Assembly (NCBI RefSeq): GCF_004364865.1
Contig: NZ_SOAU01000001.1
Span: 186,001 to 250,000 of the forward strand
DNA from: Ilumatobacter fluminis
GTDB taxonomy: Bacteria; Actinomycetota; Acidimicrobiia; Acidimicrobiales; Ilumatobacteraceae
Direction of reading: 5' to 3'
DNA length: 64,000 nucleotides
Of this stretch, positions 25,842-38,596 are shown one piece after another. A program made the position numbers and the translations under genes. Each line of letters opens with the position of its first letter. Position 1 is the stretch's first letter. The notes under the pieces were generated by a model that ran no database searches, was not told the DNA's origin, and saw only the letters and a program-made list of their open reading frames with translations.

Positions 25842-26633
25842 TCAGCGGCCCTTGAACTCGGGGGTGCGCTTCTCGACGAACGCACGCACCGCTTCGGCCG
25901 TGTCGGACGTGGCGAAGTTGACCGTCTGGGCCGAGCCCTCGTTCTCGAGTGAGCGCTGCAGCGTCGACTCGAACGACTCGTTCAGCAAGCGCTTCGTCTG
26001 CGCCAGCGCGATCGGCGGGCCGGCCGCCAGGCGCGCCGCCCAGTCGGCGACGAACGTGTCGAGCTGGTCGTTGTCGACCACACGGTTGACGAGACCGATC
26101 CGGTCGGCCTCGTCGGCGTCGATCAGGTCGGCGAACAGGGCGAGCTCCTTGGCACGATGAAGGCCGATGCGGCGGGGGAGGAACCACGACCCGCCGAAGT
26201 CGATACTGAGTCCGCGCTTGGCGAAGATCTCGGCGAAGCGAGCGGTGCGGTCGGCGACGACGAGGTCGCACGCCAACGCCATGTTCAAGCCGGCGCCGAC
26301 GGCGACGCCCGACACCTTGGCGATGGTCGGCTTCGGCATCTCCGCCAGTGCGACACACGCGGCGCCCACCCGCCGCATCGCCGACAGCTGGTGCTGGTCG
26401 AGGTGTTCGGGCGGTTCGTTCCCGTCACCGGCCAGGTCGGCGCCCGAGCAGAAGTCGCCCTCGGCGCCGGTCACGATCACCGCTCGGTCGTCACGTCGCA
26501 CGGCGATCTCGCGGAACGTCTCGGCGAGCTCGTCCCACATGTCGGACGGCACGGCATTCTTGCGTCGTGGCCGGTTCAGGGTGACGGTCACGATCCCGTC
26601 GGCACGCTCGACCAGCAATCTCTCCGAGGACAT
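25842..26633 (-). CDS. Enoyl-CoA hydratase/isomerase (crotonase) family protein
   Basis: A 263-residue crotonase: oxyanion-hole segments AEGDFCSGADLAG and GVAVGAGLNMALACDLV, and FAEIFAKRGLSIDFGGSWFL, which is close to the PaaG-type active-site pattern with Asp in the second acidic position. Such enzymes hydrate or isomerise enoyl-CoA in fatty acid or aromatic acid breakdown. The exact reaction cannot be fixed. The start at 26633 has a TACCGT box 6 nt upstream; the gene diverges from the Fic gene. Confidence 0.88.
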   Translation of the reverse strand: MSSERLLVERADGIVTVTLNRPRRKNAVPSDMWDELAETFREIAVRRDDRAVIVTGAEGDFCSGADLAGDGNEPPEHLDQHQLSAMRRVGAACVALAEMPKPTIAKVSGVAVGAGLNMALACDLVVADRTARFAEIFAKRGLSIDFGGSWFLPRRIGLHRAKELALFADLIDADEADRIGLVNRVVDNDQLDTFVADWAARLAAGPPIALAQTKRLLNESFESTLQRSLENEGSAQTVNFATSDTAEAVRAFVEKRTPEFKGR

Positions 26634-26739: not shown

Positions 26740-27927
26740 ATGGCGCCCGACCCCGATTGGCCCAGCGTGGCGTACGAGGAACGGTCGTGGACGCCGACGA
26801 CCGAGATCCCTCGACGCTGGCGAACGACGTATGCCGGCCCGTACCTCGCCGCGGTCGTCCCCACGATCGAGTCGGTCGTCGTCGACACGCCGTCGGCAGT
26901 GGCAGCGCTCGCCGACGAAGCGGCCACGATGCTTGCCGCCTTCGATGCCGAACTGGGCGTCGAGCTCGTGCCGTACGGTGCGATCCTCTTGCGGAGCGAG
27001 TCGGCCTCGTCGTCGAGAATCGAACGGTTGACCGCATCGGCCCGATCGGTCGCGCTCGCCGAGCTGGGCGACCGGAGCCGACGCAACGCCACCGAGATCG
27101 CCGCCAACACCGCTGCGATGCGGGCGGCGCTCCGCCTCGCCGACCGGGTCGACGAGGCCGCCATCCTCGAGACCCAACGAACGCTGCTCGACGACGTCCA
27201 ACCGGACGCCGTCGGATGGCGCGATCAACAGGTCTGGATCGGCGCGAGCAGCTACGGCCCGCACACGGCGGCGTTCGTCCCACCGCATCACGAGCGGGTC
27301 CGTCCGGCGGTCGCCGACCTCGTCGCCTTCGTCGAGCGAGACGACCTCCCTGTCGTGGTCCAGGCCGCGATCGCCCACGCACAGTTCGAGACCATCCACC
27401 CGTTCACCGACGGCAACGGTCGCACCGGCCGTGCGCTACTCCACGCGATCTTCCGGGCGAAGGGCCTGACACGTCACGTCGCCGTGCCCGTCTCCTCCGG
27501 ACTGCTCGTCGACGTCGACCGCTACTTCGACGCTCTCGACGCGTACCGCAACGGCGAACCCGTTCCGATCATCGAACGTGTCTCGGAGGCGATCCACGCG
27601 GCCGTCGTGAACGGACGTGCCCTCGTCGAGAGCGTCCGATCGATCCGGCAGCGCTGGAGCGACGGACTCGTCGCCCGACCGCAGGCCACCGTCTGGCGTG
27701 CGCTCGACGTCATCGTCCGCCAACCCGTGCTCGACTCGGCGTTGCTGCAGCGAGCGATCGACGTGCGGGCCCAGGCGGCCGATGACGCCATCGGGCGCCT
27801 CGTCGACATCGGCGCACTCGAACAGGTCACCGTCGGCCGCCGCAACCGGAAGTACGCCGCTCCGGAGATCCTCGCCGCACTCGACGACTTCGCCGACCGG
27901 GGCGGACGCCGAACGCCGCCCGCGTAA
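26740..27927 (+). CDS. Fic-family AMP-transferase with C-terminal winged helix
   Basis: The protein has 395 residues. The Fic core has HPFTDGNGRTGR with catalytic His at about residue 220. The N-terminal inhibitory helix has SSSRIE at about 90-95, matching the [ST]xxxE motif that blocks ATP binding in class II Fic proteins. The C-terminal about 80 residues look like a winged helix (DVRAQAADDAIGRLVDIGAL). Fic enzymes transfer AMP or other groups from nucleotides to Tyr, Thr or Ser of target proteins. The strong operator immediately upstream suggests autoregulation through its own winged helix; the targets are unknown. Confidence 0.9.
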   Translation: MAPDPDWPSVAYEERSWTPTTEIPRRWRTTYAGPYLAAVVPTIESVVVDTPSAVAALADEAATMLAAFDAELGVELVPYGAILLRSESASSSRIERLTASARSVALAELGDRSRRNATEIAANTAAMRAALRLADRVDEAAILETQRTLLDDVQPDAVGWRDQQVWIGASSYGPHTAAFVPPHHERVRPAVADLVAFVERDDLPVVVQAAIAHAQFETIHPFTDGNGRTGRALLHAIFRAKGLTRHVAVPVSSGLLVDVDRYFDALDAYRNGEPVPIIERVSEAIHAAVVNGRALVESVRSIRQRWSDGLVARPQATVWRALDVIVRQPVLDSALLQRAIDVRAQAADDAIGRLVDIGALEQVTVGRRNRKYAAPEILAALDDFADRGGRRTPPA

Positions 27928-28008
27928 CCACATCGTCGACGCGGCGACGCTCCGACTGCGGTCGCACGAGAGGCCGTCGTTACGTTCGGAGACACGGTCA
28001 CGACCCAC

Positions 28009-28013
28009 GGAGG
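28009..28013 (+). promoter_or_regulatory. GGAGG ribosome site deciding the GTG start at 28020
   Basis: The site ends 6 nt before GTG; a TACGTT box at 27981-27986 gives a plausible promoter for the three-gene operon. Confidence 0.5.
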
Positions 28014-28019
28014 CAACAC

Positions 28020-29288
28020 GTGAACTTCGATCTGCCCGACGACCTGGCGGCCTATCTCGACGAGCTCGACGACTTCATCGAGCAGGTCATCAAGCCGATG
28101 GAGGAGCGCGACGACAACATCCGCTTCTTCGACCACCGCCGCGAAGACGCCCGTACCGACTGGGAACGCGGTGGCCTCCCCAACGACGAGTGGTACGCGC
28201 TCCTGCGCGAAGCGAAGCTCGCCGCCGACGACGCCGGCCACTTCCGGTACGCGCTCCCGAGCGAATTCGGCGGCAAGGACGGCACGAACCTCGGCATGGC
28301 CGTGATCCGTGAGCACCTCGCCCGCAAGGGCCTCGGCCTCCACAACGACCTGCAGAACGAACACAGCATCGTCGGCAACAACGTCGGCCTGCTCCTGATG
28401 ATGCACTACGGCACCGACGAGCAGAAGGCCGAGTGGATGGAGCCGCTCGCCCGACTCGAGACCGGCTTCGCGTTCGGCATCACCGAACTCGACCACGGCT
28501 CCGACGCCACCCACATGGACACCCGCGCCGTCCGCGACGGCGACGACTGGATCATCAACGGCAACAAGACGTGGAACACCGGCATCGACACGGCGCCCTA
28601 CGACCTGATCTTCGCCCGCACCAGCGGCGAGGACGGCGACGGCACCGGCATCACCGCCTTCCTCGTCCCGACCGACTCGCCGGGGTTCGAGATCGAGGAG
28701 TTCCTGTGGACGTTCAACATGCCGACCGACCACGCCACGATCTCGCTCACCGACGTGCGCGTGCCGAACTCGGCGATCTTCGGCGGTGAGGGCAAGGGCC
28801 TGCAGGTCGTGCAGCACTTCTTCAACGAGAACCGCATCCGCCAAGCCGCCTCCAGCCTCGGCGCAGCGGAGTTCTGCATCGACCAGTCGATCGAGTACGC
28901 CAAGGAACGCAAGCCGTTCGGCAAGCCGCTGTCGCAGAACCAGGCGATCCAGTTCCCCCTCGTCGAACTACAGACCCAGTGCGAGATGCTGCGGGCCCTC
29001 ATCCAGAAGACGGCGTGGCAGATGGACACCTACGGCGTGTGGTCGGTGTCGGACAAGGTCTCGATGTGCAACTACTGGTCGAACCGGTTGTGCTGTGAAG
29101 CGGCCGACCGGGCGATGCAGGTGCACGGCGGCCTCGGCTACTCCCGCCACAAGCCGTTCGAGCACATCTACCGACACCACCGCCGCTACCGGATCACCGA
29201 AGGCACCGAGGAGATCCAGATGCGACGCGTCGCCGGCTACATGTTCGGCTACATGGGCCAGCGCGCCCCGAAGGGCGTCAAGGAGTAG
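28020..29288 (+). CDS. Acyl-CoA dehydrogenase
   Basis: The 422-residue flavoprotein has FGITELDHGSDATHM (flavin-binding loop), a central beta domain, and a C-terminal helical domain with RKPFGKPLSQNQAIQFPL and YRITEGTEEIQMRRV. The Glu in TEGT matches the catalytic base of medium-chain-type enzymes. It oxidises an acyl-CoA to the enoyl-CoA using FAD and passes electrons to ETF. It is first in an operon with a DmdA-like protein and a MetF-like protein. It is too short (422 residues) to be a DmdC-type dehydrogenase of the usual about 600 residues. Confidence 0.9.
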   Translation: MNFDLPDDLAAYLDELDDFIEQVIKPMEERDDNIRFFDHRREDARTDWERGGLPNDEWYALLREAKLAADDAGHFRYALPSEFGGKDGTNLGMAVIREHLARKGLGLHNDLQNEHSIVGNNVGLLLMMHYGTDEQKAEWMEPLARLETGFAFGITELDHGSDATHMDTRAVRDGDDWIINGNKTWNTGIDTAPYDLIFARTSGEDGDGTGITAFLVPTDSPGFEIEEFLWTFNMPTDHATISLTDVRVPNSAIFGGEGKGLQVVQHFFNENRIRQAASSLGAAEFCIDQSIEYAKERKPFGKPLSQNQAIQFPLVELQTQCEMLRALIQKTAWQMDTYGVWSVSDKVSMCNYWSNRLCCEAADRAMQVHGGLGYSRHKPFEHIYRHHRRYRITEGTEEIQMRRVAGYMFGYMGQRAPKGVKE

Positions 29289-29321
29289 CGCAACGCCGAG
29301 GCTGCCGTTTGAGCAGGGCGG

Positions 29322-30488
29322 GTGACGGGCACACCGGAACGTGTGACCACGTCCGTTCCCGATCTCGTCGCCGCCATCGGACCCCGAGTCCGCACCTCTC
29401 CGTTCTTCCCGGCCACCGTACGCGCCGGCGTCACGGCCGTGTCGACGTACAACCACATGTGGCTCCCGATGAGCTACGGCGACCCGGAGCGTGAGTACGA
29501 GCGCCTCACCACCGGCGTGTCGATGTGGGACGTCGCTGCTCAGCGCCACACCGAGGTGAGCGGACCCGACGCCGACGCCGTCGTCGAACTCGTCACGGCC
29601 GTCGACACGAGCGACACCGACCGGTGCCGTGCGATCTACGCACCGATGTGCGACCACGACGGTCGCCTCATCAACGACCCGGTCCTGTTCCACTGGCACG
29701 ACGGAACGTGGCGCTTCTCGATCTCCGACTCCGACGTGCGCCTCTGGCTCCAGGCGATCATCCGCGCCCACGAGTTCCGCGCTCAGGTCGCCGAGCTCGA
29801 CACCGCCACACTCGCCATCCAAGGACCGAAGGCGGGCGACGTGATCGACGCACTCGGCTTCGGATGGTTCGACGAACTCGACCAGTTCGAGCAGCGGCCC
29901 ACCCCGATGCGGCTCGACGACGGGCCCGCCGTCGAGGTGGTCGTCAGCAAGTCGGGCTGGAGCACCCAAGGCGGCTGCGAGATCTTCCTCGACGACGCGA
30001 CGCGGGCGGTCGACCTGTGGAACACCGTCTCCGCCGCCGGCGAACCGTTCGACATCGGACCGGGCGCACCGAACGCGACCGAGCGGATCGAGAACGTGCT
30101 CCTGTCGTACGGGACCGACACCGGCTACGACGCCGACCCGATCGAACTCGGCCTCACCGACCACCTCGATCTCGACCGCCCCGACTTCATCGGACAGGCG
30201 GCCCTGCGTCGCATCCGCGACGACGGACCGAAGCGACGTCTGCGAGGTGTCGTGATCGACGGCGACGACATCGGCGTGCTGCAGCAACCCGTGCCGTTCA
30301 CGATCGGCGGCGACCGCGTCGGGCTGCTCCGTGCGGCGACCCACTCGCCCCGGTTCGAGAGCAACATCGGACTCGCTCTGCTCGACGCCTCCTGCACACC
30401 CGGCGACGTCGGATCGGTCGAGCTCGACGACGGGCAGCGCACCGCACGGCTGGTCGAGCTGCCGTTCGCCGACTCGCTCGAAGACTGA
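29322..30488 (+). CDS. GcvT-fold methyltransferase, DmdA-like
   Basis: The 388-residue protein belongs to the tetrahydrofolate-dependent aminomethyltransferase fold. By eye it follows dimethylsulfoniopropionate demethylase DmdA: TSPFFPATVRAGV, YNHMWLPMSYG, MWDVAAQRH, YAPMCDHDGRLINDPVL, ISDSDVRLW and LAIQGPKAGD. DmdA moves a methyl group from DMSP to tetrahydrofolate, giving 3-methylmercaptopropionate. Many DmdA-like proteins act on other methylated compounds, so the substrate is open. The GTG at 29322 lies 33 nt after the dehydrogenase; a GTG seven codons in is an alternative. A MetF-like gene follows by 7 nt. Confidence 0.7.
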   Translation: MTGTPERVTTSVPDLVAAIGPRVRTSPFFPATVRAGVTAVSTYNHMWLPMSYGDPEREYERLTTGVSMWDVAAQRHTEVSGPDADAVVELVTAVDTSDTDRCRAIYAPMCDHDGRLINDPVLFHWHDGTWRFSISDSDVRLWLQAIIRAHEFRAQVAELDTATLAIQGPKAGDVIDALGFGWFDELDQFEQRPTPMRLDDGPAVEVVVSKSGWSTQGGCEIFLDDATRAVDLWNTVSAAGEPFDIGPGAPNATERIENVLLSYGTDTGYDADPIELGLTDHLDLDRPDFIGQAALRRIRDDGPKRRLRGVVIDGDDIGVLQQPVPFTIGGDRVGLLRAATHSPRFESNIGLALLDASCTPGDVGSVELDDGQRTARLVELPFADSLED

Positions 30489-30495
30489 GCCCGAC

Positions 30496-31467
30496 GTGAC
30501 GGCGGCACCGTGCCCGAAACACATGGTCCACGGACCGTGCGGTGGGGTCACACCCGACCTCGGGTGCGAAGTCGACGGCCGCCCGTGCCCGTTCGTCGAT
30601 GCCGTGGTGACCGAGGCCGCCGTCGAGGTCATACACCGGGCGCGCCCGGTCGACCTCGGACGCTTCGTGATCGATCTGCGTCTCCCGACCGACGACGCGG
30701 TCTTGGCCGAGGTCGCCGCCATCTACCGAGACGTGGGTGCGATCGTGCTGGTGGGCGAACACGTCGACGACCCCGACGACGCGGCACCCCATCATCACGC
30801 CGACCGGCTCGCCGAGATGGGCCTGCCGTGCGTGGTCACCGTCACCGGACGTCGCCGCTCACCCGACCAGCACCGTGCCGAGATCGAGCGACTCGTCGCC
30901 GCCGGGGTGCGTGCCGTGCACTGCATCACCGGCGACCACCCGGCCGCGCGTTTCGGACCGGACGCGACGGCCACGTTCACCCTCGACGGGGCCCAGCTCG
31001 CCGGGATCGCACGATCCGCGGGCGCTCACGTCTCCGTCGCCGAGAGCCCGATCGCCCCACCCGGCGATCGGCGCGCCGAACGCGTGGCGATGAAGGAGCG
31101 CGCCGGCGCCGACGTCGTCATCCTCAACCACGCCGGTGCGCCGCAGGCGGTCGCCGAGTTCGCAGACGGGTGCGGTGCGGCCGGTGCCTCGCTCGCCGTC
31201 GTCGCCCCGGTCCCGGTGATGACCGATGTGTCGTCGGCGCGAGCACTGTCGCAGTTCCCCGGCGTCGCGCTGCCCGACGGCCTGGCCGACCGGATCTTGG
31301 CCAGCGACGATCCCGTCGAGACAGGCGTCGCCGCCGCCGTCGAGCTCGGCGACGAACTGCTCTCCGATGACCGGTTCGCGGCGATCAACCTGTCGGGCTC
31401 CGCAACAGCGGCCGGCCCGGTCGAGCGCGCCCGCCTCATGGCGTCGGTCGCCGAGCGCCTCCGCTGA
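30496..31467 (+). CDS. MetF-like methylenetetrahydrofolate reductase with N-terminal Cys-rich segment
   Basis: The protein has 323 residues. It starts with CPKHMVHGPCGG and two more Cys (Cys6, Cys15, Cys24, Cys31), the signature of the PF12225 (MetV-like) segment that usually sits in a separate protein or at the other end of MetF. The rest has the MTHFR barrel pattern: VHCITGDHPAARFG, a KERAGADVVILNHA strand and FPGVALPDGLADRI. Role inferred: interconversion of methyl- and methylene-tetrahydrofolate. Placed 7 nt after the DmdA-like gene, it would regenerate the cofactor. The GTG at 30496 is the only start that keeps the Cys motif. Confidence 0.75.
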   Translation: MTAAPCPKHMVHGPCGGVTPDLGCEVDGRPCPFVDAVVTEAAVEVIHRARPVDLGRFVIDLRLPTDDAVLAEVAAIYRDVGAIVLVGEHVDDPDDAAPHHHADRLAEMGLPCVVTVTGRRRSPDQHRAEIERLVAAGVRAVHCITGDHPAARFGPDATATFTLDGAQLAGIARSAGAHVSVAESPIAPPGDRRAERVAMKERAGADVVILNHAGAPQAVAEFADGCGAAGASLAVVAPVPVMTDVSSARALSQFPGVALPDGLADRILASDDPVETGVAAAVELGDELLSDDRFAAINLSGSATAAGPVERARLMASVAERLR

Positions 31468-31503
31468 ATCGGATTCGCCTCGTGTGGCCCGAGCGGGTGA
31501 CAC

Positions 31504-31519
31504 GTGTACCTCGGTACAC
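31504..31519 (+). promoter_or_regulatory. Perfect palindrome GTGTACC-TC-GGTACAC
   Basis: A 7-2-7 palindrome in the 154-bp gap between the MetF-like gene and the small membrane protein gene; probably a regulator-binding site. Confidence 0.45.
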
Positions 31520-31538
31520 ATCAGCGTTATCACACCTT

Positions 31539-31554
31539 GTGGTCGGTTGACCAC
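31539..31554 (+). promoter_or_regulatory. Palindrome GTGGTC-GGTT-GACCAC
   Basis: A 6-4-6 palindrome 20 bp after the previous one and about 68 nt before the ATG at 31622. It overlaps possible -35 sequences (TTGTGG, TTGACC). Confidence 0.45.
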
Positions 31555-31621
31555 TCTGGTACAACTGCATGAGGCGGAAGCGTGCCGAGACCACGGCACG
31601 CCGACGGGACGGGAGAACACA

Positions 31622-31885
31622 ATGGCAGGGATTCGCCGCGGCATCGCCGTGGCAACACTGATGGCCGGATGCCTGGTGGGGGCATCCACGGCCGACGCGG
31701 CTGACGACGAGTCGGCCGCAGGCGTCGACGCCGGCCGAGCCGGCGCATCGAGCGCCATCGCCGACGGCGAGGTCGAACTCGGCGCCTCGCTCGCAGCAGC
31801 AACCGCGTTGGCACTCGGTCTCGCCTGCGTCGCCGCGACGCGACGCACCCAGGACGAACCCCGCCGCGAACGCATCAACTGGTGA
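31622..31885 (+). CDS. Small secreted/membrane protein
   Basis: An 87-residue protein with an N-terminal signal-like helix (VATLMAGCLVGASTADA), a short Ala/Gly/Asp-rich middle and a second hydrophobic helix near 60-75 (LAAATALALGLACVAATR), followed by a charged tail ending RRERINW. The ATG follows GGGAG by 6 nt. The plan resembles a tiny sortase substrate without the LPxTG. No family recognised. Two palindromes upstream suggest tight regulation. Confidence 0.6.
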   Translation: MAGIRRGIAVATLMAGCLVGASTADAADDESAAGVDAGRAGASSAIADGEVELGASLAAATALALGLACVAATRRTQDEPRRERINW

Positions 31886-31945
31886 CCGGACGGACCGTGG
31901 CGTGTCCGAACGACGGGCACGCCACGGTCCGGCCGGCCACCACCA

Positions 31946-34900
31946 CTACTTCTTCTTCCCCTTGCCGTTGCCGTTGCCCGGCTCGCCGTCGGTGCCGGCG
32001 CTCTGGTGGGGAACCTGGATGTTGCCGCCCTCGAGGTCGGGGGCGTTCGGGTGTGCGGCCCGGTCGAGCGTCATCTCCGGCACCAGCGAGCGGTCCTTGT
32101 TCCGCAGCTCGACCCACAGGTTGTCGTCTTCGGGTTCGCCTCGATCCTCGACGTAGAGCACGATCTGGTGGTTGCCCTCGGGCTCCGCGGCGTCGGCCGC
32201 TTGGTACGTCGCCTTCGCCGTGATCGACGCCCAACCGAACGGGGTGCCGTCGGCGTCGGCGAACGAGCCGATCGCCAGCGCCTCGATCGAGTTCGACTTG
32301 ATGCGCATGATCGAACCGTCCTCGAGGTGACGGATCATCAGCACGGTGCCCTGTGCGTTCGTGGCCTTGCGGTTGTACTTGAGCGTGAAACCGAAGTTGG
32401 TCCGGTCGCCGGCGTACCCCGTTGCCTCGTCGGACGTCCCGGGCCAGTAGAACCAGCCACCTCCGGTCGCGAAGCCGAGGCTCGGGTCGGACACGGTCAC
32501 CACGTCCTCACCGAAGCCGGTCCAGTATTCGCCGTACACCGTGACCTGAGCGTGGTACGTGTTGACCTCGACATCGTCGAAGTCGCACGTCACGATCAGG
32601 TGCTGGTCGTAGCCGTCGCCGACCGGATCGACCGACTCGTGTCGGCACTCGACCTCCGGTGACGCCGTCCCCGGACCCACCGCCGACAGCTTCATCCTCA
32701 CGATCGCCCGCTCGATGTCACCGGGGTGCGCTCCGAACTCGGCCAAGTCGGGGACGAGTTCGGAGATGTCGGCGCGCAGCGTGAACGCCGGGCTGTCGCC
32801 GCCCGGTGCGTCGACGCGGACGTCGATCGGGTTCGAGGTCGGGAAGTCGACCACGGCGTCCTCAGGGATCACGACCAGTTCGGTCGTCACCGACGTGGCG
32901 AGGGTGTCGTCGTCGACGACGGTCACCTCGATCTGGTACCTGCCGGCACCGAGGTCGACGATGCCGTTGACCTCCCACGTGCACTCCTGCCGGTCGCCAG
33001 CGACCGGAGCGCATCCGACGGTGTCGAGCCGGAGCCCGCCGAACGGCAGCGTCGCGGCGCTGTCGCCGTCCGGGGTGATCGTCGCCGAAGCCTGCAGTAC
33101 GTCGAGCGAGACGTCCGACGCCGTCACGGTCACGGTGCCGAGCTCGTCGCTGTACTGCACCGTCTGCGTGGCTCGGTCCCGATCGACGACCGGCGCCACG
33201 TCGTTCACCGTCTCGGCGGTGCCGCCGACTCCGACGTCGCCATCGGGGATGTCGGTGATCGTGACGGCGATGTCGTACACGTCGGCCGGGGTGCTCGTCG
33301 GATCGTCGTCGCGATAGGTGTGCGGCACGACGATCGCTCGGGTCGGGACCCCCGGCGTCACCGGGAGCTCGGCGTCGATGGTGAGATCGGCGTCGTCGAC
33401 CCCCAGGCCGTCGTCGGCACGATCGACCAGGATGCCGAGCCCGGTCACCGTCCAGATCTCGTCGATCGCCGTGTTGCCGTTGCGTGCGTCCCACGTGATC
33501 GCGAGCTGGTGGCTGTCGAGCGTGCCGGGGTCGTTCCACGAGAAGGTGTAGAGCTGCTCGACGCCCTCGTCGATCACGCCGCCCGGCACGATGCCGGTGA
33601 TCGTCGGGGCGACGTTGACGACCGGCAGGTCGTACGTTCCCGAACCCGTGCCGCCGTCCTTGTCGACGACCGTCACCTCGATGTCGGCCACCTCGTCGAG
33701 CGGATTCTGCAGGTACTGATGGGTGAACGTCGTCGAGGTGACGCCGGCGGCGAGGGAGTTGGTGTCGCTCGACCCGTCACCCCATTCGATCGTCACGTCG
33801 TGGGTGTCGAGCACGCCCGGATCGGTGAACGACACCTCGACCGACACCGAGTCGTTCTCGGCGATCGACGCCGGAGTCGGTACGACGGTGACACCGCTCG
33901 GATCGACGTTGAGCGCCGTCACGGCGACCGACAGGGTCTGACCGACGAACGGGTCGGTCATCGACACGGTCTTCGTCTCCGCCGCGCTCGGCGACGGGCC
34001 GTCGTCGGCGTAGGTGTGGCTCGTCGACGCCGACGTCGCGCCGATCGGCACGGTCAGTGAACCGGACGTGCCGTCACCCCACGTCACCGACACGGTGCGG
34101 GCCTCGGCGACGGGACGGTCGTAGGTCAGTGTGGCCGTGGCGACGTTGCCCTCGTGCACCACGTTCGGGCTGCCGCCCGGCTCGACCACCGTCAGGGCCG
34201 CCATCCGGGCCGGGACGGTCACGCCCGGACGGACGATCTCGTTCCCGAAGAAGGCAGCGAGTTGTCCGGCCGACCAGCAGGTCGACGGCGTGGTGCCGCC
34301 GAGTGCGTCGATCACCGACGTTGCGAGGTTGGAGGCGTTCTTGGCGAACACGTCACCGTTGACGCCGAAGTCCCACTGCACGCTGGCGCCGACGTCCTGG
34401 CTGAACAGTACGACGAACAGGCCGAGTTGTATCTCGTTCGTGTAGCCCGAACCGAGGTCGCCGAGTGTGCCGGCGCGCCAGTCGAACGAGGCGCACTCGA
34501 GTCTGAACAGGTCACCGCTCAGCACGAGCGACGAGAGGTCGTTCGCGAGTTCGGTCGCGTCGATCGCGAGGTCGATGCCGGCGATCACCGAGTCGATGAT
34601 CGGATCGATGATGTAGCGGTCGAGGATTTGATCGAGTGTGCAGGTGCTGCCGAGCCCGAGGGTGCTGCACAGACCCGGGATGTAGAAGGGCTCGTGCAGG
34701 AAGCAGAAGCCGTTCGGATAGCCCGATGCACTCGTCTTCGTCTTGCCGCTCGGGCCGTAGCCCCATTGCGGCCATCCACAGACCCAGTCGCCGTCGATGT
34801 TCTTCGTCTCGATCCCCGGCAACCCGAAGTACGTACCGTTCAGCAGGAAGCTCAGCCGGGCGTTGACCTCGGAGTCGCTGGCGCCGTCGAGCATGTCGTC

Positions 34901-37900
34901 GATGACGTCGATGATCGTGTCGATGTTCGAGTCGGCGTCGTACTCCCTGAGGAGCCGCTTCGCCTTCGAGAACTGGTTGTTCCGCAGCGCCGATGCGATG
35001 TTCTGGATGTCGCGCAGCCCATCGGTGAGCTCGGCCAGATCGGAGCTGACGGTCGACTGCAGGTCGGAGGCGAAGTCGAGTTCGGGAGCGACCTCACTGT
35101 TCGCCAACTCGACATGCAGTGCGAAGTTGTTGTCCGGGATCGTGCCGTCACCGAACAGGTCGGTCAAGCCGGCGGTGTTCGCGGTGAACTGGCCGGCGAC
35201 GAGCATCTTGTAGTTCATGGCCGGGAGCGCGGACGTGACCTGTCCGTACAGCTTCACGTCGGCGCCCGACAGCGTCGCCGTCAGCTTGGCGTTGAAGTCG
35301 CCGTTGGCCCACGCGTCGCAGTAGGCGCCGAGCGAACAACCGCTGCTCGACTCGGTTCCGCCGAGCGCCGCGCCGCCGTAGAAGTGGATGAACGCGCCGC
35401 CGGTGGTGACCTCGAACCGGAGCGAAACGCCGCGTCCGTCCTCGCCGGTCTCGCCGACGGCGGGAGCCAGCACGTGGACCGGGCCGGCGTCGAACGCAGC
35501 GATGAACGCGTCGCCGACGAGGCCTCGATCGTTGACCGCCAGCCGGATGCCGGCGACACAGCCGGCTTCGATGTCGTCCTGGTCGCATGCAGCCGTCGGC
35601 GCGGGTGACAGTTGACCGAACGTGGCCGACGTCGGGTTGGCGTCACAGCTGAACAGCGGCAGATCCGACGGCCCAGGGTCGTCGCTGATGTAGAGGTCGC
35701 CGCTCAGGACGAAGCCCGCCTGGATGCAGAGCGGTTGGATGTCGTCGGTGCCGATGTTGATCGCGGCGTTCCGCAACGACACGCCGGGCAGTTCGATGCC
35801 GTCGGGGACGTCCTGGCCGGACACCCACTCGTAGATCTCGACCATGTTGTCGAGCGACACCTGTGCGACGTTCAGCCGCATGCCGTTGAACTCGACGAGG
35901 TTGGGCAGGAAGCCGAGTTCGAGCGCAGCGCTGAACGGGATGTTCGGCGTCGTCTCGATCGATCCGCTGAAGGCGCCTCCCAGGGTCACCGAGGTGCCGG
36001 ACGAGCCGGACTCGATGCCGAGGGTCGCGGTGACCTGGCCGATCGCGAACTTGTCGAAGCCCATCGGGCGCCAGCCGTCCGGGTTCGGGTCACCCGACTC
36101 CAGGATCGACTGCGCATCGCCGATCAGGTCGACGGCGACGCCGTCCGGCCCTGCCTCGATCGATGCGCTCACCAGCAGACGCAACAGGTCGTTGCAGTAC
36201 GTCTCGCCGGCGGTGAAGCCGCCCGTGCCGTCGCGTTCCACCTTCTTCACGCCGCCGCGGGCGCAGTCGGCGGCGCCGGCGGGAGCGAGCGTGTTGGCGG
36301 CGATCGCGCCACTGTTCCCGGCGAACATCGCTGCGGCCTGATCGCCCGACAGGCCCTGCTTCACGGCCACGTCCATCGTGCCGAGCATGCCGAGTTGGAA
36401 GCCGGACAGGCCGCTCGTCATCGACAGGCCGAGCGAAGCATCGTGCAGCCATGTGGGGCGGTCGGCGACCGACGCATCGAGGAGGCTCACCCCGAGGGTG
36501 AGGCCGACATCGGTCATCGACGAGCCGGGGATCGGGATCGTGCCGGTGATCGTGACCCTCGAATCGAAGCCGATCGCGCCGAGCAACCCCAGCGCGTCGG
36601 CACACGCCTGGGAGCCCGGATCGCTCGTGCAGGCCGACGTGTCGGACTGCGCGCCGATCGGGTGCGGCATGACGAAGGAGCCGGCCGTCGTCAGCCCCTG
36701 CGGCACGATGAACGAGGTCGCCGGCTGATAGTCGGTCCGGAACGAGCAGATCGTGCACGAACCGGTGAGCGAGGTGCTGTCGGTCAGCGCCTCGTTGCTG
36801 CCGTCGTACCCCCACAGCGGCATGAGCCACTGGGCGACGTTCGTCGTGACCGTCTGCCGGGTGTTGAGTGTCGGGCACGGGTCGGCCGACACGCTGCAGG
36901 GGTCGCCACCGATCCGTGCGCGATCGGTCGAGAAGACGACGCCGAACCCGACGGTGGGATCGTCGGCGTCGTACACCGCCACGTCGAAGGCGGCGTCGAG
37001 ACCGGGAACGATGTCGGACAGCATGATGTCGTCGCCCGCGGCACCGTCGCCGCCGATCGGGCGCTCGGACGGGCTCACACCGACCATCGCCGAGGGCGTC
37101 GTGCCGAGGTCGGCGAACACCATGAGGCTCGCCAGCACCGTCGCGTCGCCGTCGAACACGGAGGTTTCGAGCTTGCCGGTCGCGCCGACTCGGAACACGT
37201 CGGCGGCGATCGAGATCGAGACGACCGGGTTCGAGATCGACGTCGTTCGGAACGAGGGTGGGATGTCGCCGGAGTTCAACAGCGAGCTGCCGAACATGGT
37301 CTCCAGCCCGGCGACGTCGAGGTCGGGGAACGTCGCCGTCAACCCCACTGCCGGGGCGCCGTCGCTGAGCGACGGCGTGATCGCGAACGTGACACTGTCC
37401 CCGTCGACGGTCGCGGTGCCGGTCAGTGCAGCACTGAAGTTGGTGCCGTTCTTCGTGAACTGTGCGGCGACGTCGATGTCGATCGACGTGTTCGGCACGG
37501 TGAAGGTGTCGATCGTGCCGCCGACCCGGATGATCGACGGCGTCACCGTCTCACCGAGGTTCTGCGACACGTACAGGTCGGGGCCGAACCCGACCGGTGT
37601 CTCGAACACGTGCGGCACGGTCGCGTCCCAGCTCGAGCCGGCTCCGCTCACCTGCACGTTCTCGGACGCCTGGTTGTAGTTGACGTCGAACGTCCAGTCG
37701 GCGCTGCCGCTCGACAGCGCGAGCGTGACCGGGTCGGACGTCCACGACGGCCCGGTCGCCGTGGCGGTCACGTCGAGGTCGAGCGCGGCGAGCACGGCAC
37801 GCCCGACCGACCCGGCGTGCTGGCCAGTCAGGTCGCTGACCGACGCAGCGACCACGCCTCGCACGGCCATGCCGGTCTGGCCGTCGGCGCCGACGATGTC

Positions 37901-38596
37901 GACGATCTCGTCCCATCCTGCTCCGGCGTCGAAGTCGCCCGCGATCGACACGGCGCCGCCACTCGTATCGGCCAGCGGCGCCGGAACGGTCGCCTCGCCG
38001 AGTGCCTCCGCGACGAAGTCGGCTGACTCGCCCGGGAGGGCGTCGATGTCGCCGGCGCCGTCGAACGCGACGACGCCGATCGTGTCGGCGACCAGATCGG
38101 CGACGCCGGCCTTGCCGTCGACGAGCGGCAGCAGTTCGCCGAGCGTGGCTCGGTCGGCGGGGTCACTCACGTGCATGGCGACCACCAGTGCCGCTGCGTC
38201 ACCGGGCGTCGCCGCCTCGGCGTGCACCACGATGTCGACGGCGAGCCCGGACGTGCCGGGCAGGGTCGCGTTGGCGGCGACCGTGAAGGCGTCGTCGGTC
38301 ACGAGCACGGCCGACCCGACGGCCTCGAGGCTGATGCCGGTGAACGCACTCGAGTCGAACGCGTCGACGAAGTCGGTGCCGGTTCCGTAGCTGTTGCCGT
38401 CGACGTCGATCTCGTCGAGCAACGCCTCCACCGAGGTGTCGGCGGCGAGCGGCACCTGGCCGGTGCCCAACGTCGGGAGCGCGGCGCTCCGCCCGCCCGA
38501 GGTGAGTACCGCGACCAAGATCGCCGCCAACGGCAGCACGAACAGCCCCGTCCGCCACCACTGCCCCGAACGTCGTCCGCTCCGTCCGTCTCCCAT
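31946..38596 (-). CDS. Giant secreted protein with PKD-like domains and a C-terminal post-COAP-type domain
   Basis: The protein has 2216 residues. A signal anchor lies at about 14-32. The first about 1450 residues are beta-rich and contain repeated motifs of the type VTATGPSW; I recognise no catalytic site. From about 1470 to 2000 come PKD/Ig-like domains (VTWGDGTSGSL, IEWGDGSSDT, both with WGDG). The C-terminus at about 2035-2150 has FATGGGWFYWPGTSD and NFGFTLKYNRKATNAQGTV, a domain I have seen at the ends of actinobacterial surface proteins. It ends GNGNGKGKKK. AAAGGGG lies 6 nt before the ATG. It is probably secreted and not anchored. Confidence 0.85.
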   Translation of the reverse strand: MGDGRSGRRSGQWWRTGLFVLPLAAILVAVLTSGGRSAALPTLGTGQVPLAADTSVEALLDEIDVDGNSYGTGTDFVDAFDSSAFTGISLEAVGSAVLVTDDAFTVAANATLPGTSGLAVDIVVHAEAATPGDAAALVVAMHVSDPADRATLGELLPLVDGKAGVADLVADTIGVVAFDGAGDIDALPGESADFVAEALGEATVPAPLADTSGGAVSIAGDFDAGAGWDEIVDIVGADGQTGMAVRGVVAASVSDLTGQHAGSVGRAVLAALDLDVTATATGPSWTSDPVTLALSSGSADWTFDVNYNQASENVQVSGAGSSWDATVPHVFETPVGFGPDLYVSQNLGETVTPSIIRVGGTIDTFTVPNTSIDIDVAAQFTKNGTNFSAALTGTATVDGDSVTFAITPSLSDGAPAVGLTATFPDLDVAGLETMFGSSLLNSGDIPPSFRTTSISNPVVSISIAADVFRVGATGKLETSVFDGDATVLASLMVFADLGTTPSAMVGVSPSERPIGGDGAAGDDIMLSDIVPGLDAAFDVAVYDADDPTVGFGVVFSTDRARIGGDPCSVSADPCPTLNTRQTVTTNVAQWLMPLWGYDGSNEALTDSTSLTGSCTICSFRTDYQPATSFIVPQGLTTAGSFVMPHPIGAQSDTSACTSDPGSQACADALGLLGAIGFDSRVTITGTIPIPGSSMTDVGLTLGVSLLDASVADRPTWLHDASLGLSMTSGLSGFQLGMLGTMDVAVKQGLSGDQAAAMFAGNSGAIAANTLAPAGAADCARGGVKKVERDGTGGFTAGETYCNDLLRLLVSASIEAGPDGVAVDLIGDAQSILESGDPNPDGWRPMGFDKFAIGQVTATLGIESGSSGTSVTLGGAFSGSIETTPNIPFSAALELGFLPNLVEFNGMRLNVAQVSLDNMVEIYEWVSGQDVPDGIELPGVSLRNAAINIGTDDIQPLCIQAGFVLSGDLYISDDPGPSDLPLFSCDANPTSATFGQLSPAPTAACDQDDIEAGCVAGIRLAVNDRGLVGDAFIAAFDAGPVHVLAPAVGETGEDGRGVSLRFEVTTGGAFIHFYGGAALGGTESSSGCSLGAYCDAWANGDFNAKLTATLSGADVKLYGQVTSALPAMNYKMLVAGQFTANTAGLTDLFGDGTIPDNNFALHVELANSEVAPELDFASDLQSTVSSDLAELTDGLRDIQNIASALRNNQFSKAKRLLREYDADSNIDTIIDVIDDMLDGASDSEVNARLSFLLNGTYFGLPGIETKNIDGDWVCGWPQWGYGPSGKTKTSASGYPNGFCFLHEPFYIPGLCSTLGLGSTCTLDQILDRYIIDPIIDSVIAGIDLAIDATELANDLSSLVLSGDLFRLECASFDWRAGTLGDLGSGYTNEIQLGLFVVLFSQDVGASVQWDFGVNGDVFAKNASNLATSVIDALGGTTPSTCWSAGQLAAFFGNEIVRPGVTVPARMAALTVVEPGGSPNVVHEGNVATATLTYDRPVAEARTVSVTWGDGTSGSLTVPIGATSASTSHTYADDGPSPSAAETKTVSMTDPFVGQTLSVAVTALNVDPSGVTVVPTPASIAENDSVSVEVSFTDPGVLDTHDVTIEWGDGSSDTNSLAAGVTSTTFTHQYLQNPLDEVADIEVTVVDKDGGTGSGTYDLPVVNVAPTITGIVPGGVIDEGVEQLYTFSWNDPGTLDSHQLAITWDARNGNTAIDEIWTVTGLGILVDRADDGLGVDDADLTIDAELPVTPGVPTRAIVVPHTYRDDDPTSTPADVYDIAVTITDIPDGDVGVGGTAETVNDVAPVVDRDRATQTVQYSDELGTVTVTASDVSLDVLQASATITPDGDSAATLPFGGLRLDTVGCAPVAGDRQECTWEVNGIVDLGAGRYQIEVTVVDDDTLATSVTTELVVIPEDAVVDFPTSNPIDVRVDAPGGDSPAFTLRADISELVPDLAEFGAHPGDIERAIVRMKLSAVGPGTASPEVECRHESVDPVGDGYDQHLIVTCDFDDVEVNTYHAQVTVYGEYWTGFGEDVVTVSDPSLGFATGGGWFYWPGTSDEATGYAGDRTNFGFTLKYNRKATNAQGTVLMIRHLEDGSIMRIKSNSIEALAIGSFADADGTPFGWASITAKATYQAADAAEPEGNHQIVLYVEDRGEPEDDNLWVELRNKDRSLVPEMTLDRAAHPNAPDLEGGNIQVPHQSAGTDGEPGNGNGKGKKK

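What the first reader, a model, noticed from the sequence alone, without database searches (positions are those of the whole stretch)
28020..31467. Acyl-CoA dehydrogenase, DmdA-like and MetF-like operon
A DmdA-like methyltransferase is 7 nt from a MetF-like reductase, so a methyl group put on tetrahydrofolate could be oxidised at once. The dehydrogenase upstream could process the acyl-CoA product. A crotonase is nearby on the other strand. The dehydrogenase is too short for DmdC, and DmdB is absent, so this may be a route for another methylated compound.
Basis: partly seen in the sequence, partly recalled or inferred. Interest (0 to 1): 0.55.

Follow-up and report, generated by a model that had tools for sequence, protein, structure and literature searches.

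The report
DmdA-like demethylase paired with MTHFR-like enzyme
Two adjacent genes in an actinobacterium look like a small portable module that takes a methyl group off some methylated compound and oxidises it; a similar gene pair is known in ocean SAR11 bacteria, but this version has changed conserved positions and an unusual second enzyme.

Summary
The three-gene reading fails. The acyl-CoA dehydrogenase (ACAD) is a widespread backbone gene (34 of 61 genomes, own included), far from the pair in the 3 pair genomes checked. A same-genus genome has the same ACAD followed directly by the next gene, with the two other genes missing. A crotonase of the same kind stays near the ACAD in a genome where the pair was not found. 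What is conserved is a two-gene module, DmdA-like plus MTHFR-like: adjacent in 5 of 5 genomes carrying this DmdA-like subfamily, in at least four different surroundings. The DmdA-like protein has the DmdA fold and keeps S122, W197 and E204 (3TFH numbering), but Q65, R83 and W120, invariant in 48 of 48 other family members aligned, are all replaced. Its partner is a very divergent MTHFR barrel with an N-terminal four-cysteine MetV-type motif. Most likely it is a dedicated demethylate-and-oxidise module; the substrate is unproven, and DMSP is possible. A DmdA-like gene beside metF is already published for SAR11 (PMC3160333), so this is a new variant of a known kind.

The parts
29322..30488 (+). 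DmdA-like GcvT-family THF-dependent demethylase, 388 aa, GTG start
   Evidence: PF01571/PF08669; NF009133 DMSP demethylase 284 bits, below its 410 cut-off; PDB 3tfh E 8e-67 by sequence; top fold hit 3tfh_A, TM 0.87/0.92
30496..31467 (+). MTHFR-like protein, 323 aa: N-terminal four-Cys MetV/DUF5981-type motif (C6, C15, C24, C31) followed by an MTHFR-type barrel
   Evidence: PF02219 and PF12225 in 8 of 8 aligned members at E<=0.1; top fold hits E. coli and T. thermophilus MTHFR; invariant columns
28020..29288 (+). acyl-CoA dehydrogenase, 422 aa; upstream neighbour, judged NOT part of the module
   Evidence: homologues (58-97% identical) in 34 of 61 genomes, own included, unlinked to the pair in 3 of 3 pair genomes checked; present in G003 and G004, where no DmdA-like match was found
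25842..26633 (-). crotonase/enoyl-CoA hydratase; judged NOT part of the module
   Evidence: PF00378; 29-32% to DmdD; 90% identical copy near the ACAD in G004, one more crotonase-like match lying between them
29289..31487 (.). approximate extent of the stretch absent at the corresponding place in G003 (empty site)
   Evidence: blastn blocks window 27993-29290 and 31488-31887 lie 43 bases apart in L073; joined-flank alignment

Best explanation
The pair is a self-contained two-gene methyl-oxidation module. The DmdA-like enzyme moves a methyl group from a small methylated compound to tetrahydrofolate (THF), giving 5-methyl-THF. The MTHFR-like enzyme encoded just downstream oxidises this to 5,10-methylene-THF, returning the one-carbon unit to biosynthesis or oxidation and freeing THF. 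The cell has a separate canonical MetF for biosynthesis. The substrate is most likely a methylated osmolyte of the DMSP type, or a related compound to which the subfamily has adapted. Shown: gene identity, predicted fold, adjacency in five genomes, the same pair in different surroundings, and replaced family-invariant residues. Inferred: methyl transfer to THF, the oxidative direction, and the substrate class. The upstream dehydrogenase is at most a provider of readthrough transcription.
For: Adjacent in the same order in 5 of 5 genomes with the >=57% subfamily, with overlapping stop and start in two and gaps of 7, 15 and 2 to 23 nt (start codon unsure) in the others. In the 120 genomes (own included), the MTHFR-like gene is in 5 of 5 carriers of this subfamily and 0 of 11 carriers of other DmdA-family genes (Fisher 2.3e-4; shared ancestry ignored). 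Outside the pair no gene is shared by all five neighbourhoods, and the window shares none with the other four (651 open frames of 80 aa or more, E<=1e-10). DmdA fold; S122, W197, E204 and D108 kept. A canonical MetF is encoded elsewhere at C1:635758-636579(-). Precedents for the logic: ligM-metF-ligH (PMC6888825 passages) and SAR11_1265 beside metF (PMC3160333 passages).
Against: The MTHFR-like barrel matches MTHFR weakly: 33 bits in Pfam, and 15-20% identity in the canonical-enzyme fold hits listed. At the catalytic Glu position it has Asp60 in all 8 members, by a global profile alignment of low confidence there, so MTHFR activity is not assured. Homologues in G074, G639, G191 and G488 have no DmdA-like match at E<=1e-3 in the 16-18 kb around them, so the family is not bound to demethylation. 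No transporter or downstream catabolic gene is shared around the pair, so the substrate is unconstrained by context.
Confidence: 0.55

Rival explanations
1. Ordinary DMSP demethylation: the protein is a divergent DmdA acting on DMSP, with DmdB- and DmdC-type enzymes supplied from elsewhere in the genome and a general hydratase in place of DmdD.
For: DMSP-specific Trp kept (W197 of 3TFH). Its wider 23-row group holds a Marivivens protein encoded directly before an AMP-binding protein, an ACAD and dmdD and a G072 protein beside a 74% DmdD. DmdB-like (38-39%) and DmdC-like (45%) proteins elsewhere in the genome. Grouping with canonical DmdA not rejected (p 0.123).
Against: Q65, R83 and W120, invariant in 48 of 48 others including canonical DmdA, are all replaced in the five. 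NF009133 score 284 is below the 410 cut-off. No match to the Marivivens DmdD at E<=1e-30 in any of the five pair genomes, though SAR11 lacks DmdD too (PMC5069961 passage).
Confidence: 0.3
2. One reading: the ACAD processes the acyl-CoA product of the demethylation.
For: Same strand, 33-nt gap, no terminator-like site found between them.
Against: The ACAD is unlinked to the pair in G009, G021 and G034; G003 and G004 have a 96-97% ACAD and no DmdA-like match at E<=1e-30; G003 shows the site without the pair. 23% identity to DmdC.
Confidence: 0.05
3. The MTHFR-like protein is not a reductase working on free methyl-THF but an electron-transfer or folate-binding partner of another kind, or it runs in the reducing direction.
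For: Asp at the catalytic Glu position, an NH pair where the genome's own MetF has TQ, and an extra four-Cys motif; homologues without a DmdA-like neighbour.
Against: Best fold hits are MTHFRs; the position of Asp120 of E. coli MetF (here D147, my mapping) is invariant. Tight linkage to a DmdA-like gene fits methyl-THF as the shared intermediate.
Confidence: 0.1

Closest known systems
DmdA, DMSP demethylase (Pelagibacter ubique 3TFH; Phaeobacter inhibens DSM 17395 plasmid copy)
   Same: Fold, length, S122, E204, D108; W197 as in 3TFH; 34-35% identity
   Different: Outside the starred canonical clade; Q65H, R83V/I, W120R/H, Y206F; paired with an MTHFR-like gene, with no dmdB, dmdC, dmdD or acuI match at E<=1e-10 near it apart from weak general crotonase and ACAD matches
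SAR11_1265 aminomethyltransferase beside metF SAR11_1264 (PMC3160333, PMC5069961; passages read)
   Same: DmdA-related gene adjacent to an MTHFR gene; the authors speculate on a demethylation step and note methyl-THF oxidation by a MetF elsewhere
   Different: Alphaproteobacterial; its sequence could not be fetched here, so kinship to this subfamily is untested
ligM-metF-ligH operon of Sphingobium SYK-6 (PMC6888825, passages read)
   Same: THF-dependent demethylase encoded with an MTHFR that recycles methyl-THF
   Different: LigM is a far worse fold match (ranks 23 to 38)
MetVF-type (type II) MTHFR of acetogens; Acetohalobium MetF with fused MetV domain (PMC8760232, PMC5039349; passages read)
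   Same: MetV/DUF5981-type Cys motif together with an MTHFR barrel
   Different: Here a short motif N-terminal to the barrel in one 323-aa chain, in an actinobacterial lineage
Flavin-independent mycobacterial Mfr (MSMEG_6649, Rv2172c)
   Same: MTHFR-type barrel in an actinobacterium
   Different: Weaker fold match (7wmz_B, TM 0.60/0.66, 12% identity); catalytic Glu9 in hMfr (PMC11094777 passages), so its barrel starts at the N-terminus, whereas here a Cys motif comes first

Membership tests
DmdA (DMSP demethylase) | GcvT-family fold with DmdA as closest structure | tested here: met
   3tfh top by sequence and by fold
DmdA (DMSP demethylase) | Curated equivalog score (NF009133 >= 410 bits) | tested here: not met
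   284.4 bits
DmdA (DMSP demethylase) | Falls in the clade with verified DmdA | tested here: inconclusive
   Outside the 10-row clade (100/100); AU test does not reject union, p 0.123
DmdA (DMSP demethylase) | DMSP-specific Trp (W171 in PMC7487153; W197 of 3TFH by constant offset, my mapping) | tested here: met
   W in 5 of 5; 3 of 48 others have Y, the Phaeobacter DmdA among them, so the residue is not a sharp test
DmdA (DMSP demethylase) | Other family-invariant positions Q65, R83, W120 | tested here: not met
   Invariant in 48 of 48 others, replaced in 5 of 5
DmdA (DMSP demethylase) | Catalyses DMSP + THF to MMPA + 5-methyl-THF | not testable with these tools
   needs enzyme assay
MTHFR (MetF) | PF02219 above gathering score and MTHFR barrel fold | tested here: met
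   33.1 bits vs cut-off 24; Foldseek E 2.3e-11
MTHFR (MetF) | Catalytic Glu28 (E. coli) | tested here: not met
   Asp60 in 8 of 8, by global hhalign to the genome's own MetF; alignment of the first strand is low-confidence and is missing from the local alignments
MetV-containing (type II) MTHFR | MetV/DUF5981 Cys motif with bound FeS or Zn | tested here: inconclusive
   Motif model matched in 8 of 8 at E<=0.1, window protein 23.1 bits against a 23 cut-off; metal not testable; pLDDT under 50 for residues 1-14
DmdC (for the upstream ACAD) | DmdC-type protein (547 and 586 aa in the two references) | tested here: not met
   422 aa, 23% identity; a 45% DmdC-type protein lies elsewhere, C1:4590031-4591758
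DmdD (for the crotonase) | Close similarity to DmdD | tested here: not met
   29-32%, against 74% for the copy in G072

The most novel reading that the evidence does not exclude
The five proteins are a new demethylase specificity within the DmdA superfamily (Trp to Arg/His two residues before the folate-site Ser, plus Q65 and R83 lost) acting on a methylated compound other than DMSP. The partner is a single-chain MetV-MTHFR that sends the methyl electrons to a carrier other than NAD(P), giving aerobic actinobacteria a portable dissimilatory methyl-oxidation cassette.
Probability: 0.22. Interest if true: 0.6.

Novelty: new variant of a known kind. Interest (0 to 1): 0.38.

Why it matters
DmdA-family genes are used to estimate how much marine DMSP is demethylated. 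A subfamily with altered family-invariant positions, tied to its own MTHFR-like gene, could be miscounted as dmdA, or could reveal another methylated substrate. It also offers a second case in which to test the unproven proposal about the SAR11_1265/metF pair.

Tried and rejected
Three-gene operon with the ACAD: rejected by lack of linkage and by the G003 site. Crotonase as DmdD: 29-32% only. LigM-type demethylase: LigM chains rank 23 to 38 among fold hits. Flavin-free Mfr family: weaker fold match than canonical MTHFR. Recent insertion marks: no tRNA in the window; pair GC 0.709 against 0.683 for flanks; only imperfect GC-rich repeats, the 21-nt 76% pair at 29306 and 31481 being too weak to count. 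My first neighbour comparison used a crude gene caller that missed some of the pair genes themselves and reported no shared neighbours; the fuller check found that G021 and G057, one genus, share a neighbour gene (67%, placed differently beside the pair) and a weaker 34% match, so I dropped the claim of five unrelated sites. Papers: one open-licence paper holds both DmdA and Ilumatobacter; its passages report dddX in an Ilumatobacter MAG. No paper on a DUF5981-plus-MTHFR protein of this layout was found (four phrases, three papers, two of them opened at passages). Neighbours of the MTHFR-like gene in G074, G191, G488 and G639 suggested no second demethylase by eye, and none has a DmdA-like match at E<=1e-3. 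G005 holds only the C-terminal part near a contig end, so whether it has a DmdA-like neighbour is open. Five weak MTHFR-like hits (E 1.7e-12 to 5.1e-11) were not followed.
Full report
Setting. The window is C1:186001-250000 of a 4.78-Mb single-contig genome; its nearest named relatives by the DmdA-like gene are Ilumatobacter records. The genome has two GCV_T proteins at E<=0.001: one at 2234978 with a far better score, taken as the true GcvT, and the DmdA-like protein of the finding. It has two PF02219 proteins: a canonical MetF at 635758 (263 bits) and the one of the finding (33 bits).

Observation. The three frames, the 7-nt gap, the crotonase and the short ACAD are all there. Both domains are detected in 8 of 8 aligned family members at E<=0.1.

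What travels together. Among 120 genomes (own included), 16 have a DmdA-family match at E<=1e-30; 5 of these, window included, are 57-100% identical to the window protein and the other 11 are 45% or less. The MTHFR-like gene is in 7 of 120 at E<=1e-8, including all 5, and lies directly downstream in each. None of the 11 other carriers has it; Fisher p 2.3e-4, hypergeometric 1.1e-7, both rough because the genomes are related. In a class-wide draw of 395 genomes the two searches found 4 carriers of the subfamily, all with the partner, and two more genomes with the partner alone (at most 4 or 5 candidates per genome were scored, so misses are possible). Outside the pair, no gene is shared by all five neighbourhoods, and the window shares none with the other four; G021 and G057, which are one genus, share a neighbour gene at 67% identity, placed differently beside the pair, and a weaker 34% match. 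So there are at least four different surroundings. The identities of the two proteins fall in broadly the same order from genome to genome, as co-inheritance predicts.

The ACAD is not part of it. Its homologues (58-97%) occur in 34 of 61 genomes, own included, and lie far from the pair in G009 (2169959 against 2777000), G021 (3834041 against 694170) and G034 (different contigs). G003 and G004 have it at 96-97% with no DmdA-family match at E<=1e-30. In G003 the blocks matching window 27993-29290 and 31488-31887 are 43 bases apart; the joined-flank alignment shows the same ACAD end followed by the counterpart of the gene at 31623. The pair was therefore gained here or lost there; the differing surroundings favour gain. 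In G004 a 90% crotonase stands near the ACAD, with one more crotonase-like match between them, so the crotonase looks like backbone too. G003 is only 79% and G004 81% complete, but the G003 contig itself shows the site.

The DmdA-like protein. Its top structure match by sequence and fold is P. ubique DmdA, with LigM far behind. In a 45-row tree the five form a clade (100/100) inside a 23-row group (90/94, not starred), next to the 10-row canonical DmdA clade (100/100). That 23-row group contains the Marivivens protein of an apparent dmdABCD run and the G072 protein beside DmdD, so DMSP activity in the group is plausible. Forcing the five with canonical DmdA is not rejected (p 0.123). An alignment of 53 rows (5 + 48; L035, L119 and the five far rows L039b, L041b, own GcvT, 9q59 and 1yx2 left out, 13 of the further loci added) shows S122, E204 and D108 in all, and W197 in 44 of 48 others and 5 of 5. 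Q65, R83 and W120 are invariant in 48 of 48 others and replaced by H, V/V/V/V/I and R/R/R/R/H in the five. These three sit in blocks that align with 3TFH without gaps; the apparent G169 change is in a loop where a one-residue shift is possible. Y206F is not special, since 25 of 48 others have F. PMC7487153 (passages) names a folate-site S, E and Y and a DMSP-specific W; I mapped them to 3TFH by offset. What Q65, R83 and W120 do was not found in the passages read.

The MTHFR-like protein. An AlphaFold model (mean pLDDT 81.7, N-terminus poor) matches canonical MTHFRs best. The Asp of the GD motif (D120 in E. coli numbering, my mapping) is invariant, while the Glu28 position holds Asp60 in all 8. 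The motif recalls MetV, an FeS- and zinc-containing subunit of MTHFRs reported to use ferredoxin (PMC8760232 passages). A MetF with a fused MetV domain is described for Acetohalobium (PMC5039349 passages). Homologues at 38-42% in two order-level relatives and in two same-phylum genomes stand without a DmdA-like match nearby, so the family seems to have been recruited beside the demethylase. That is inference.

Known relatives of the idea. A DmdA-related aminomethyltransferase beside metF is described in SAR11, with the speculation that it removes the second methyl group in DMSP degradation (PMC3160333 passages); both genes appear in a table of genes changed under sulfur limitation (PMC5069961 passages). 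ligM-metF-ligH shows the same logic for methoxy-aromatics (PMC6888825 passages). A Haloarcula plasmid also has a GcvT-like gene with an MTHFR gene nearby on the other strand. Hence a new variant of a known kind rather than a new kind.

Verdict. The pair is real, conserved and portable. Its chemistry up to methyl-THF is likely, its substrate is open, and the ACAD and crotonase should be dropped from the story.

Noticed in passing
L043, L044, L045, L047 (Ilumatobacteraceae): Canonical-clade dmdA genes with DUF2182 and DUF1326 genes and an acuI-like gene close by, as in Marinovum and Antarctobacter plasmids: likely DMSP demethylation loci in actinobacteria.
   Followed up: partly
L055 10434-11987; L038 13998-15485; L041 11394-12866; L050 2747-4153: A trimethylamine-methyltransferase (MttB) family gene lies within a few kb of a DmdA-like gene in Phaeobacter sp. 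G2 and in three acidimicrobial loci (39-49% identity).
   Followed up: no
L061 4923-6299 and 6659-7519: Haloarcula marismortui plasmid pNG700 carries a DmdA/GcvT-like gene with an MTHFR gene nearby on the other strand: perhaps an independent pairing.
   Followed up: no
window 26740-27927: Fic-domain protein gene between crotonase and ACAD; no Fic match at E<=1e-20 in the G004 stretch that keeps crotonase and ACAD.
   Followed up: partly
window 31946-38596 (-): A 2216-aa frame that reads like a very large exported repeat protein, just beyond the module; in the G003 contig the blocks on either side of it lie next to each other.
   Followed up: no
L119 (G650:C12:22881-24023): A DmdA-family homologue with one TAG and one TAA inside, possibly decayed.
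   Followed up: no
L037 5551-6042(-) and L106 7463-7885: A small gene shared at 67% beside the pair in G021 and G057 but on different sides of it.
   Followed up: no
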